Of a stretch of DNA of 64,000 nucleotides, positions 9,148 to 44,605 are shown in pieces (positions within the stretch are counted from its first letter, which is position 1; each line of letters opens with the position of its first letter). The stretch is from positions 1,426,001 through 1,490,000 of the forward strand of contig NZ_CP097462.1 of NCBI RefSeq assembly GCF_023559245.1, given 5' to 3'. The notes beneath the pieces are model-generated. The model did no database searches, had not been told where the DNA came from, and was given only the letters and a program-made list of their open reading frames with translations. The position numbers and the translations under genes are program-made. Source of the DNA: Sphingomonas sp. KRR8. GTDB lineage: Bacteria; Pseudomonadota; Alphaproteobacteria; Sphingomonadales; Sphingomonadaceae.

Positions 9148-9172
9148 GGAACAAACAGCGGGCAATAAGGTT
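9148..9172 (+). promoter_or_regulatory. EcfG-type promoter for nepR
   Basis: GGAAC at 9148-9152 is followed by 17 bases and GTTT beginning at 9170. It lies 65 bases before the nepR start and points toward nepR and the downstream kinase gene, giving feedback control by EcfG of its own anti-sigma factor. Confidence 0.75.
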
Positions 9173-9236: not shown

Positions 9237-9497
9237 GTGCAGTCTCTGCGCTTTCCAGATGAGATCACGAGTATTTTGCGCCATGGCAATGTCGGCGTTA
9301 CGGGGGACGAAAGGTTGAGTGCGAACAACGATGCGGAAAACCGCCCTCCCCCAAGAGAGCGGAGCGAGGCGCCGAAGAAGCGCCGCCGCACCGATCCGCC
9401 GGGTTCGGTCGGGCGCGCGCTCAAGACCGTCTATGACGACACTCTCCGTGAAGAAGTGCCCAACGACTTCCTCGACCTTCTCGGCAAGCTCAGCTGA
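9237..9497 (+). CDS. nepR: Anti-sigma factor NepR
   Basis: An 86-residue protein whose C-terminal part (residues 57-86: SVGRALKTVYDDTLREEVPN followed by DFLDLLGKLS) is the conserved NepR core that clamps EcfG and is captured by phosphorylated PhyR. The N-terminal 55 residues are variable and rich in charged residues and proline. The GTG at 9237 is preferred because a strong ribosome binding site, AGGGGGG at 9224-9230, lies 6 bases before it. A TTG further in would give a length nearer 60 residues but has a poorly spaced site. It is followed after 27 bases by the PhyP-like gene. Confidence 0.92.
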   Translation: MQSLRFPDEITSILRHGNVGVTGDERLSANNDAENRPPPRERSEAPKKRRRTDPPGSVGRALKTVYDDTLREEVPNDFLDLLGKLS

Positions 9498-9524: not shown

Positions 9525-11132
9525 ATGAACGGACTGCTCGGCTGGTTCCGTCGCCTGCCCACCCCTGGCAAGCTGCTGATCATCCTGTCCGCGGCCATTC
9601 TTCCGCTGGGCCTGGTCCTGGTCTGGGCGGCAACAACCAGTATCAACCGCGCCAATCAGGCGCTCATTTCCGAGACGGAAACCCGCAGCCGCGGCGCCAG
9701 TCGCGCGGTTGAAAGCCTGCTGTCGCGCAATGTCCTGGCGCTGCGAATCGCTGCCACTGCGGCGCTCCGCACCCCGGGCGACGACGCCTGCGCACTTGCC
9801 AAGCGCTCGCTCAGCGTTTCGCCCAATGTAGCGGGAAGCTTCGCCCTGCAGGATGCGAACGGCCAACTGCTCTGCACGGTGGGCACCATCCAGCTACCGA
9901 ATGAGGGTGCGCTTATCGCCCCCGGCAAGGTCCGCTTGTGGCTCTCACCGAGCGGAAACGTGCTCTACTATCGCGTCGGCGTGCTTGGCGGGATCGGCAC
10001 CGGAACCCTCTCCCGGGAAGAATTGCGCGATGCCGCGCTGACCTCCACCGACACGCTGCGTCGGCTCACCATCTCCGACCGTCAGACCACTGCCACCCTG
10101 ATCGACGACGAAAACGCGGCTGCGGACCCGCCCGTCGAACTTCCTCGCCATGACGCCGACCTCCAGCTGATCGATCGTGACTGGACGATCGCTGGCAACC
10201 AGCTGTCGGTTCACACCGCGGCCTATGTGCGCCGGATTACGGCGGGCGAGCGCAGCGTGATCCTGCTTCCGCTGGTGATGTGGATCCTCGCCGCCCTGCT
10301 CAGCTGGCTGATGGTCAGCCGCTTCCTCATCCGCCCGCTTCGCCGGGTGCAGCGCGCGGTCAGCAGTTATGAACCCGGCAGCGGTGACCTCAAGCTGCCA
10401 GAACGGCTCGGCTCTGCGACGGAGATCCAGGAACTCGCCGCCAGCTTCAGCCGCGCGGTTGTCCGGATCGAGCAGTCGGAAAAAGACATGGCCGTGGCCC
10501 TCGAAGGGCAGCGCCGCCTGGTTCGTGAAGTTCATCACCGCGTGAAGAACAACCTGCAGGTCATCGCCTCGCTGCTCAACATCCACAGTCGAACCACCGC
10601 CGCCCCGGAGGCGCGCGATGCGTATGCATCGATCGGCCGCCGGGTGGATGCGCTCGCCGTTGTCCACCGCAATCATTATGCCGAGCTCGAGGAAAATCGC
10701 GGCATCTCGCTACGTCCGCTGATCAGCGAGCTTGCCTCCAGCTTGCGTGGAAGCGCACCGGACAGTGCCCGGCGCTTCAACATCGACCTGCAGCTGGACA
10801 CACTCAACACCACCCAGGACTCCGCCGTCGCACTCGCCTTTTTCACCACCGAAGTGGTTGAATGCGCGATGCTGACGCACCCGAACGACGCGGTCCGCCT
10901 TACCCTTGAGCGGATCAACGACCTGTCGGCGCGCTATACCATCGCGGCCACCCTGCTGGACCCGGCGACCGTCGACGAACGCCCCCAGTTCGAACGGATC
11001 ATCAGCGGGCTCGCCAAGCAATTGCGCTCGCCGCTCGAACGCGAGCCCGGCAGTTACAGCGTGATCTGTCCCGTGTTTCCGCCGCGCGATTACCGGGAAG
11101 AAGAAAAATCGGTGCTGCCCGAAAAAAGTTGA
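9525..11132 (+). CDS. phyP: PhyP-like membrane sensor, HisKA_2 histidine kinase with degenerate ATPase domain
   Basis: A 535-residue membrane protein with helices at about residues 17-36 and 245-267, enclosing a periplasmic sensor domain of roughly 200 residues, then a HAMP-like linker. The HisKA_2 dimerisation block is intact (EVHHRVKNNLQVIASLL, with H338 the likely phosphoacceptor). The ATP-binding half is not: the N-box position reads EVVECAML instead of an ELVTNA-type motif, and no DxGxG box is visible before GLAKQL. In Sphingomonas sp. Fr1 a gene called phyP, encoding a negative regulator of PhyR, acts in this pathway. Gene position and loss of ATP-binding motifs suggest the same phosphatase role here. 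The symbol is by inference. Confidence 0.75.
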   Translation: MNGLLGWFRRLPTPGKLLIILSAAILPLGLVLVWAATTSINRANQALISETETRSRGASRAVESLLSRNVLALRIAATAALRTPGDDACALAKRSLSVSPNVAGSFALQDANGQLLCTVGTIQLPNEGALIAPGKVRLWLSPSGNVLYYRVGVLGGIGTGTLSREELRDAALTSTDTLRRLTISDRQTTATLIDDENAAADPPVELPRHDADLQLIDRDWTIAGNQLSVHTAAYVRRITAGERSVILLPLVMWILAALLSWLMVSRFLIRPLRRVQRAVSSYEPGSGDLKLPERLGSATEIQELAASFSRAVVRIEQSEKDMAVALEGQRRLVREVHHRVKNNLQVIASLLNIHSRTTAAPEARDAYASIGRRVDALAVVHRNHYAELEENRGISLRPLISELASSLRGSAPDSARRFNIDLQLDTLNTTQDSAVALAFFTTEVVECAMLTHPNDAVRLTLERINDLSARYTIAATLLDPATVDERPQFERIISGLAKQLRSPLEREPGSYSVICPVFPPRDYREEEKSVLPEKS

Positions 11133-11140
11133 GGTGCGCC

Positions 11141-11165
11141 GGAACAAGCCTCCGGGATTGTCGTT
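11141..11165 (+). promoter_or_regulatory. EcfG-type promoter with no gene downstream
   Basis: GGAAC (11141-11145), 16 bases, then CGTT (11162-11165) is a perfect general stress promoter. It begins only 9 bases after the phyP stop and points into a 168-bp intergenic space before the convergent tatC end. The transcript would start near 11171-11175 and contains no plausible reading frame. Confidence 0.75.
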
Positions 11166-11170
11166 CTACT

Positions 11171-11280
11171 CTTCGGATAGCGACCTTTTGCCCCCCCGCT
11201 CTCGCTGTCCGCTTACATGGGCCCGGAACCGCTTACCCTCCCCCCCCCCGGTAGCGCTTCCGGGCCCACTTGTGTCTGGG
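11171..11280 (+). ncRNA. Candidate general-stress small RNA with two C-rich hairpin loops
   Basis: Downstream of a perfect EcfG promoter, the predicted RNA folds into two hairpins. The first pairs GGATAGCGA (11175-11183) with TCGCTGTCC (11202-11210), 9 pairs with one G-U, around an 18-base loop containing seven consecutive C. The second pairs TGGGCCCGGAA (11218-11228) with TTCCGGGCCCA (11258-11268), 11 pairs. It has a further inner stem (TACC with GGTA) and a 12-base apical loop that is all C except one T. This resembles GsrN of Caulobacter, a sigma-T-controlled RNA that uses a C-rich loop to bind mRNA leaders. The 3' end is uncertain because no long T-run follows. The second hairpin may also end convergent tatC transcription. 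Confidence 0.6.
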
Positions 11281-11300
11281 GCAGCAGAAATCAGAGAAAT

Positions 11301-12071
11301 TCAGGCGGCAGGATCCGGCGCGGCAGCGGCCTTGCGGGCGGCGCGCCAGTGCGTGATCCGGATCGCCAGCAGCGCGAATTCATACAGCGCGTAGAGCGGC
11401 ACCAGCAGCAGCAGCATGGACACGGCGTCCGGCGGCGTCAGTACGGCGGCGACCGCGGCACAGACGACGATCGCGTGCCGCCGGCGGCTGGCCAGCTGCT
11501 CGCGGGTGACGATGCCCGCCCGCTCCAGGATCATCAGCAGCACAGGCGTGAGAAAGGCGACGCCAAAGCCGAACAGGAAACGGGTGACGAAATTGAGGTA
11601 ATTGCCGACGCCGGGCAGCGCCTCCTGCTGCACCCCGCCGATCTGCCCGTCGAAGCCCAGCAGGAACTTCAGCGCCCACGGCATCGCCACGTAAAAAGCG
11701 AACAGTGCCCCGGCGGCGAAGAAAAAGGGCGTCATGAGGAGGAAGGGCAAGAAGGCCTTCTTCTCCTTCACATAAAGGCCCGGCGCGATGAACCGCCACG
11801 CCTGTGTCGCGAATACCGGGAAGCAGAGCATCAGGGCCGCGAACAGCGCTACCTTCACTTCGGAGAAGAACGCTTCGAACACGTCGGTGTAGATGAGTTT
11901 GGCCTGCCCGGCGCGGGCCAGTGGCTGCAACAGCACGGAGTAGATCGGCCGGGCGAAATACATGCACAGGAAGAAAGCGGCGATCAGCGTCACCAGGCTG
12001 ATCAGCAGCCGCCGTCGAAGCTCGATCAGATGTTCGAGAAGCGGTTGCTTGGTGTCGTCGATGTCCTTCAC
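11301..12071 (-). CDS. tatC: Sec-independent protein translocase TatC
   Basis: A 256-residue polytopic inner-membrane protein that recognises twin-arginine signal peptides. The N-terminus has the family signature PLLEHLIELRRRLLIS at about residues 9-24, followed by six predicted helices. FVTRFLFGFGVAFLTPVLLM marks the conserved fourth-helix region. The start at 12071 overlaps the tatB stop as ATGA. It is the last gene of the argS-to-tatC run, and its stop faces the candidate small RNA. Confidence 0.95.
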   Translation of the reverse strand: MKDIDDTKQPLLEHLIELRRRLLISLVTLIAAFFLCMYFARPIYSVLLQPLARAGQAKLIYTDVFEAFFSEVKVALFAALMLCFPVFATQAWRFIAPGLYVKEKKAFLPFLLMTPFFFAAGALFAFYVAMPWALKFLLGFDGQIGGVQQEALPGVGNYLNFVTRFLFGFGVAFLTPVLLMILERAGIVTREQLASRRRHAIVVCAAVAAVLTPPDAVSMLLLLVPLYALYEFALLAIRITHWRAARKAAAAPDPAA

Positions 12072-44260: not shown

Positions 44261-44605
44261 ATGAACCGCAAACTCATCCTCCTTCCGATCGCTGCGGCCT
44301 TGGCTGTCAGCGCCTGCAACAGCAGCGACCACAACCTCGTGGACAATGGTCCGCCGGATCCCATGGCGAATGAGCTTAAGAATGCTCCGCCGGTGGAGCT
44401 GCCGCCGGCGATCACCGCCAGCAAGGTCTACCGCTGCAAGGACAACAGCCTGGTCTACATCGACTGGCTCAGCAACGGCGCGGCCCGCGTCAAGAAGAAC
44501 AAGACGGACGCCACCGGCACCGACATCCCCGCCGGTTCGGCCGACATCAAGGGCGACGCCAAGGCTCCGACGATCACCTACAAGGGTCAGAGCTGCAAGG
44601 GCTGA
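44261..44605 (+). CDS. Small lipoprotein of unknown function
   Basis: A 114-residue protein with the signal MNRKLILLPIAAALAVSACN, the lipobox being AVSAC with cysteine at residue 19. The mature part includes YRCKDNSLVYIDWLSNGAAR and ends TYKGQSCKG. The two mature cysteines could form a disulfide. It resembles small MliC-like or unnamed alphaproteobacterial lipoproteins but I cannot assign it. The ATG at 44261 is preferred to an upstream start that would disrupt the signal. Confidence 0.75.
   Translation: MNRKLILLPIAAALAVSACNSSDHNLVDNGPPDPMANELKNAPPVELPPAITASKVYRCKDNSLVYIDWLSNGAARVKKNKTDATGTDIPAGSADIKGDAKAPTITYKGQSCKG

What the first reader, a model, noticed from the sequence alone, without database searches (positions are those of the whole stretch)
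11141..11280. Unannotated small RNA driven by a perfect EcfG promoter, with two cytosine-rich hairpin loops
Seen directly: GGAAC-N16-CGTT starting 9 bases after phyP; no plausible reading frame downstream; a 9-pair stem (11175-11183 with 11202-11210) whose loop has seven C in a row; and an 11-pair stem (11218-11228 with 11258-11268) whose apical loop is nearly all C. Known: the Caulobacter general stress RNA GsrN is controlled by sigma-T (the EcfG homologue) and uses a C-rich loop to bind G-rich mRNA leaders. Inferred: this is a GsrN-like riboregulator encoded inside the PhyR-NepR-EcfG locus itself. A sigma factor, anti-sigma, anti-anti-sigma, phosphatase and RNA effector would then sit side by side.
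Basis: partly seen in the sequence, partly recalled or inferred. Interest (0 to 1): 0.85.

Follow-up and report, generated by a model that had tools for sequence, protein, structure and literature searches.

The report
Stress-response small RNA of sphingomonads
Just after the genes that switch on the general stress response, this bacterium carries the signature of an apparently undescribed small RNA with two cytosine-rich loops, conserved across Sphingomonas-like bacteria, that probably tunes messenger RNAs during stress.

Summary
The perfect EcfG site (11141-11165) and both C-loop hairpins recur in 35 of 37 sampled genomes of the genus (probably Sphingomicrobium, by contig-length match). All 36 copies fetched have GGAAC-N16/17-CGTT exactly 9 nt before stem 1. 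Across the family, 25 of 28 stem pairs show two-sided changes, while loop 1 is mostly kept. A covariance model finds it at E<=1e-6 in 106 of 298 family genomes. Of 20 model-negative genera with PhyR, 17 carry a different C-loop RNA near phyR, behind GGAAC and a near-consensus -10. At E<=1e-6 no genome of the 298 has both forms, and 223 have one. Rfam has no match. Outside the family (385-genome class draw) only weak, terminator-like hits appeared. One paralogue keeps promoter and loop 1 on a different stem and terminator. Best explanation: an EcfG-induced, about 105-nt trans-acting RNA that pairs with G-rich mRNA leaders, working like Caulobacter GsrN; homology to GsrN is not shown. Transcription and targets are inferred; nepR's G-run ribosome-binding site is only a candidate.

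The parts
11141..11165 (+). EcfG-type promoter GGAAC-N16-CGTT
   Evidence: kept with N16/17 and exactly 9 nt to stem 1 in 36 of 36 genus copies fetched
11172..11276 (+). Proposed small RNA, about 105 nt; both ends inferred
   Evidence: promoter spacing and terminator hairpin; fold z -8.1; no transcript data
11174..11211 (+). Hairpin 1: 10-pair stem (11174-11183 / 11202-11211)
   Evidence: fold; pairs with two-sided changes 8 of 10 family-wide, 1 of 10 in the genus alone
11184..11201 (+). Loop 1 CCTTTTGCCCCCCCGCTC, candidate seed
   Evidence: nearly invariant in 36 genus copies; same loop on another stem in a paralogue
11218..11268 (+). Hairpin 2, likely terminator stem with C-rich apical loop 11238-11249
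   Evidence: 8 of 18 pairs with two-sided changes in the genus, 17 of 18 family-wide; U-rich tail in several relatives but weak here
9525..11132 (+). phyP/phyT, upstream neighbour
   Evidence: beside the RNA in 30 of 30 genus loci compared
11301..12071 (-). tatC, convergent downstream neighbour
   Evidence: 29 of 30 genus loci compared
9148..9172 (+). EcfG-like site GGAAC-N16-GGTT upstream of nepR (part of the regulatory circuit)
9302..9306 (+). G-run (GGGGG) at ribosome-binding distance from the likely nepR start TTG 9315; candidate target only

Best explanation
It is a stand-alone small RNA gene. When stress releases EcfG from NepR, EcfG polymerase starts just after 11141-11165 and makes an RNA of about 105 nt that ends at hairpin 2 (inferred). 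The RNA presents two cytosine-rich loops. Loop 1 (UUUUGCCCCCCCGCUC) is the main seed and base-pairs in trans with G-rich mRNA leaders or ribosome-binding sites, changing their translation or stability, probably with Hfq (inferred). It adds a post-transcriptional arm to the general stress response. Shown: conserved promoter, spacing, structure, loops and neighbourhood. Inferred: transcription, pairing, targets.
For: Present in 35 of 37 sampled genus genomes; the two misses are 77% and 79% complete. Promoter at fixed distance in 36 of 36 copies. Model hits in other genera, scored without the promoter, still have GGAAC-N16/17-NGTT in 32 of 34 strong loci (a 35th, L078, was dropped because its contig ends inside the RNA). 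In 120 loci found by a loop/stem pattern in titled genome records, 110 have the strict promoter within 85 nt and the other 10 have GGAAC with TGTT or CATT; control 110 of 22,579 windows. Covariation: 25 of 28 pairs with two-sided changes, 0 of 500 shuffles as high. In L091-L094 no phyR or phyP was found in the 6-kb stretch, yet the RNA and its promoter remain beside tatC, so it is not just the phyP 3' end. A paralogue (L122) keeps promoter and loop 1 on an unrelated stem and terminator, as expected if the loop is the working part. GsrN's C-rich loop is predicted to bind G-rich targets (PMC5869019, section 10 part 1).
Against: No expression data. In this window the U-tract after hairpin 2 is poor (CTTGTGTCTGGG), and the terminator scan did not report hairpin 2 (its loop limit of 8 excludes it). 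No target was established: a scan for loop-1 complements near ATG in 25 genus genomes gave 168 sites against 44 for the reversed pattern, but of 49 stretches inspected only a few look like leaders (for example before an FtsZ-like frame, L279) and I saw no leader of one gene recurring between genomes. G-runs near starts are common (8 of 52 window genes by my rough gene calls, nepR included). In Caulobacter nepR and sigT co-purify with GsrN, but the authors found no evidence for their regulation.
Confidence: 0.8

Rival explanations
1. The element is only the 3' end of phyP: a terminator between convergent genes, with no separate RNA function.
For: It lies between convergent phyP and tatC; hairpin 2 looks like a terminator and has U-rich tails in several relatives.
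Against: A terminator needs neither a promoter at fixed distance (36 of 36) nor a near-invariant loop 1 on a covarying stem; in L091-L094 the RNA sits by tatC with no phyP found in the fetched stretch.
Confidence: 0.06
2. It is a leader or attenuator of a downstream gene such as the entericidin-like lipoprotein found between it and tatC in Sphingomonas.
For: Entericidin A/B follows on the same strand in S. parapaucimobilis, and an entericidin match was found in 22 of 27 loci examined (one of the 22, L344, has no visible RNA).
Against: In the window nothing but convergent tatC follows, and tatC follows in 29 of 30 genus loci; the only entericidin-like match in the window (E up to 1) is a weak one at 44267-44329. 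In S. melonis the 'predicted small secreted protein' #1442, probably this gene, is listed with its own EcfG motif 30 nt before its start (PMC6599016, outline listing).
Confidence: 0.03
3. It encodes a small EcfG-induced peptide.
For: ATG/GTG/TTG frames of 21-36 codons run through it, and 29 of 36 copies share a GTG at the same place in stem 1.
Against: C-run lengths change by single bases (6-9 and 8-11), so the frame after the loops switches between species; 34 of 36 longest frames do not stop before the end of the aligned RNA.
Confidence: 0.03
4. The C-rich loops bind a protein (for example Rho or an RNA chaperone) and act as a sponge instead of pairing with mRNAs.
For: Exposed C-rich tracts are typical of Rho sites (recalled); the second loop is little more than a C-run of variable length.
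Against: Loop 1 is kept well beyond its C-run (GCTC after it), which suggests sequence-specific pairing; GsrN precedent.
Confidence: 0.08

Closest known systems
GsrN of Caulobacter crescentus and its predicted homologues (Tien, Fiebig, Crosson 2018, PMC5869019)
   Same: EcfG/sigma-T promoter, about 100 nt, 5' C-rich loop with six C in a row, homologues usually near the core GSR genes (abstract, sections 7 and 14, section 10 part 1 and passages read).
   Different: Only weak model hits outside Sphingomonadaceae in our class draws; two C-rich loops here; a different gap (phyP-tatC). That paper states that Erythrobacter litoralis has no apparent gsrN-like gene.
Form B RNA of other Sphingomonadaceae, seen here near phyR
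   Same: GGAAC-type promoter, stem of about 10 pairs with a C5-C7 run in its loop, terminator, GSR locus.
   Different: Different loop (AGACCCCCCUCCCGUCCAAG), one constant C loop, -10 mostly CATT, divergent from phyR; never in the same genome as form A at E<=1e-6 in 298 genomes.
SuhB sRNA of Sphingopyxis granuli TFA (PMC6563040, passages)
   Same: A sphingomonad trans-acting sRNA, Hfq-dependent.
   Different: 61 nt and raised at high growth rate, not stress.
Rfam alpha-r14 (RF02344)
   Same: Alphaproteobacterial sRNA family; a weak chance-level match of 11.9 bits against a gathering score of 58.8.
   Different: E 3.5, so not a member.

Membership tests
GsrN | Promoter of the EcfG/sigma-T type directly upstream | tested here: met
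GsrN | Located at or near the phyR-nepR-ecfG locus (typical, not universal) | tested here: met
GsrN | Exposed C-rich 5' loop with at least six C | tested here: met
   seven C in loop 1 of the window; covariation-supported stem
GsrN | About 100 nt with an intrinsic terminator | tested here: inconclusive
   predicted 105 nt; stem conserved, but the U-tract is weak in the window
GsrN | Sequence or model similarity to Caulobacteraceae GsrN | tested here: inconclusive
GsrN | EcfG-dependent transcription | not testable with these tools
   no transcriptome held
GsrN | Processing to a stable 5' isoform; Hfq stabilises the full-length RNA | not testable with these tools
   -
GsrN | Activates katG by pairing with its leader | not tested
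   the katG leader of this genome was not fetched
Any Rfam 15 family | Score at or above the gathering threshold | tested here: not met
   whole window; E up to 5, 11100-11310 only

The most novel reading that the evidence does not exclude
A C-loop small RNA is a core, near-obligatory component of the general stress response throughout Sphingomonadaceae. It comes in two mutually exclusive designs (form A after phyP, form B near phyR), each fixed in its own lineages, and at least one of its targets is the nepR ribosome-binding site, so that the RNA lowers the anti-sigma factor and feeds back on EcfG.
Probability: 0.15. Interest if true: 0.82.

Novelty: new variant of a known kind. Interest (0 to 1): 0.63.

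Why it matters
The GSR of sphingomonads is studied in S. melonis and S. granuli, yet term searches of the main texts of two EcfG papers found no sRNA of their own (PMC6599016; PMC7083833, whose single 'non-coding' is a reference to SuhB); supplements could not be read. The S. melonis study used an RNeasy kit, which as recalled loses most RNA under 200 nt, and scanned motifs only upstream of annotated coding genes, so this RNA could escape it. A conserved RNA with a nearly fixed seed makes the post-transcriptional arm of this response directly testable, in bacteria used for plant protection and bioremediation. The A/B split would show that a C-loop RNA at this locus has been kept in two different designs.

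Tried and rejected
Rejected: homology to an Rfam family (for form B only locus L350 was searched); a phyP-terminator-only reading and an entericidin-leader reading (see rivals). Targets: a search for GAGCGGGGG near ATG in 25 genus genomes and inspection of 49 stretches (30 loci plus 19 fetched, two showing one site) gave no recurrent orthologous leader; one recurring site (L300-L303) looks like a hairpin GCCCCCGGAGCGGGGGC, not a leader. nepR G-run: kept (G4 or more) in 21 of 21 Sphingomicrobium leaders (20 plus the window), G5 or more in 13 of 21, but G4 occurs in 12 of 52 window genes and pairing is only about 6 bp by hand, so it stays a candidate. PhyR loci of 12 other-family genomes (12 of 73 tested have PhyR; two stretches cut by contig ends): three sites had a promoter-like match plus a C5 run within 60 nt (L332, L339, L341; the last about 230 nt before phyR on the same strand), none of which I judged a clear equivalent. 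Of weak model hits, 12 of 24 had no promoter. Eight R3 hits outside the family read as terminators; one, L385, was first printed at a wrong offset and re-read: it has a C5 run, and no GGAAC in the 75 nt before it. Viral contigs: no match to a loop pattern of form A or form B. L344 has a phyP-tatC locus but no visible RNA of either form; L362 and L363 also lack both.

Full report
WHAT IS THERE. The site alone is not significant (0.45 expected in 64 kb). The fold of 11172-11276 is (z -8.1) and includes both conserved hairpins; adding more 3' sequence dislodges hairpin 1 in the minimum-energy fold.

WHERE IT COMES FROM. The genome is one contig of 2.87 Mb. The genus is therefore probably Sphingomicrobium in the GTDB sense (inference from lengths).

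CONSERVATION IN THE GENUS. By blastn, 35 of 37 sampled same-genus genomes match (E below 1e-16); the two misses are 77% and 79% complete, and of 24 genomes from elsewhere in the order the best match is E 0.037, which on reading is not this element (L037). Of 30 loci compared, phyP lies beside the match in 30 and tatC in 29. In the 36 copies fetched (35 genomes; a further partial copy at a contig end of G031 was not fetched) the promoter is GGAAC-N16/17-CGTT and stem 1 begins exactly 9 nt after it in all 36, although the sequence between varies. Loop 1 is nearly invariant. Covariation in the genus is strong for hairpin 2 (8 of 18 pairs with two-sided changes) but weak for hairpin 1 (1 of 10), which hardly varies.

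CONSERVATION IN THE FAMILY. A model from the 36 copies (R1) found matches in 100 of 396 order genomes at E<=0.1, in 18 of 84 genera, all in the same family; two of the 100 (G239, G310) are weak hits without promoter in genomes that carry form B. Of 39 aligned family-wide copies, 93.6% of pair cells are standard pairs, 25 of 28 pairs show two-sided changes (shuffle mean 13.1, 0 of 500 as high), and slid controls reach at most 14; the alignment is fitted to the model, which leans towards it. The promoter was not part of the model: it is nevertheless present upstream in 32 of 34 strong loci (L078 dropped, contig end); of the other two, L076 has GGAAC with a degenerate -10 and L097 has GAAAC with AGTT. 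Of the 120, 110 have the strict promoter within 85 nt; the other 10 have GGAAC with TGTT or CATT; control 110 of 22,579 windows. phyP ends within 400 nt upstream in 89 of 120, tatC converges within 600 nt in 91, both in 72; in four of the rest phyP lies a little further off (L151, L161, L175, L196). In an S. parapaucimobilis replicon (NZ_CP155750.1) the order is ECF sigma factor, hypothetical, response regulator, NepR, histidine kinase, [RNA], entericidin, tatC; no feature is listed under the RNA, but that table holds no RNA genes.

INDEPENDENCE. In L091-L094 the RNA and promoter lie beside tatC, and no phyP or phyR was found in the fetched stretch, so it is an independent unit. One genome (G919) has an extra copy (L122), away from phyP and tatC and next to SRAP-type peptidase and ImuA-like frames (my reading), with an EcfG site, the same loop 1 on a different stem and a different terminator.

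A SECOND FORM. R2 (from the 39 copies) hits 125 of 298 family genomes at E<=0.05, 106 at E<=1e-6. I asked what the misses do, taking 24 genomes from the no-match rows; 20 of them have PhyR. Of these 20 loci, 17 carry another RNA near phyR (two of them, L346 and L354, about 1 kb away): GGAAC, a -10 of CATT in 15, GGTT in 1 and CTTT in 1, then TGTCACCGCCGAGACCCCCC(C)TCCCGTCCAAGCGG..GGTGA.. and a GC-rich terminator with a U-tract. Its alignment of 16 shows 93.7% paired cells and 8 pairs with two-sided changes (9 of 500 shuffles as high on that count; 0 of 500 on the covariation score), all in the terminator helix; hairpin 1 scarcely varies. Model R3 hits 117 of the 298 genomes at E<=1e-6, with zero overlap with the 106 of form A; together 223 of 298. 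Of the remaining 75 most were not examined: some genera lack PhyR (4 of the 24), some have divergent copies with promoter and tatC (for example L111, L112, L118). Whether A and B share ancestry is open. Names for form B genera were not obtained; that they include Erythrobacter is a guess.

OUTSIDE THE FAMILY. In 385 class genomes of 277 genera, the best R2 hit outside the family is E 0.0085. R3 gave eight hits outside at E<=0.01, the best E 5.2e-5 per genome; they read as terminator hairpins without the C-loop stem. Twelve PhyR loci of other families showed no clear equivalent, though three had a promoter-like site with a C5 run behind it. This does not test Caulobacteraceae specifically.

HOW IT PROBABLY WORKS. 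The closest precedent is GsrN, whose C-rich 5' loop is predicted to pair with G-rich targets and which activates katG (PMC5869019; abstract, sections 7 and 14, section 10 part 1 and passages read). The shared design is promoter, size, locus and C-loop, so the same mode of action is the best guess. For a target, nepR is attractive: its likely start is TTG 9315 with GGGGG at 9302-9306, and G4 or more is kept in 21 of 21 Sphingomicrobium leaders, G5 or more in 13. Against it, G-run sites are common, pairing is short, and in Caulobacter nepR co-purified with GsrN without evidence of regulation. A general target scan was inconclusive.

IN PRINT. Searches for 'GsrN' (14 papers), for EcfG with small RNA and sphingo, sRNA with PhyR and sphingo, sphingomonad sRNA terms (3,090 papers, 25 listed), S. 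granuli EcfG, PhyP with Sphingomonas, Novosphingobium sRNA and C-rich loop with EcfG listed no description of this RNA; I judged from titles and starts of abstracts in the listings, and most subscription papers are not held. The S. melonis EcfG transcriptome (PMC6599016; outline, sections 6, 65, 66, term search) and the S. granuli EcfG paper (PMC7083833; term search only) mention no sRNA of their own under the terms searched; PMC8103513 was seen in passages.

VERDICT. A real, conserved small RNA gene of the general stress response by every comparative test run here, of the GsrN kind in design but not shown to be its homologue, with a second form in the same bacterial family.

Noticed in passing
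L345-L361 (near phyR), e.g. L350:4258-4351 (-): A second C-loop RNA with GGAAC-type promoter near phyR in 17 of 20 PhyR-bearing genera tested, exclusive with the window's form at E<=1e-6.
   Followed up: partly
L122:3000-3095 (+): A paralogue with EcfG site and identical loop 1 on a different stem and terminator, beside SRAP-type and ImuA-like frames; possibly a mobile or SOS-linked copy.
   Followed up: partly
L106 near 3001 (-): A further weak copy in G312 (which also has a normal one): promoter present and two C-rich stretches, no GSR genes found around it.
   Followed up: no
L103-L105: Terminator-like hairpins with C-rich loops, two of them (L104, L105) right after a gene end; C-rich terminator loops may be common in these bacteria.
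   Followed up: no
L341:5816 (+): In a genome of another family, an EcfG-like site about 230 nt before phyR is followed by a C5 run in a strongly folded leader; not pursued.
   Followed up: no
window 9148-9172: The nepR-phyR gap carries an EcfG-like site GGAAC-N16-GGTT; sites of this kind recur in the related nepR leaders read.
   Followed up: partly
window 9237 / 9315: The nepR start is probably TTG 9315 (about 60 aa), not GTG 9237, judging by conservation of the TTGAGTG start and its upstream G-run.
   Followed up: partly
L387:5218-5352: An entericidin-like lipoprotein sits between the RNA and tatC in many Sphingomonas and Sphingobium loci but not in the window.
   Followed up: partly
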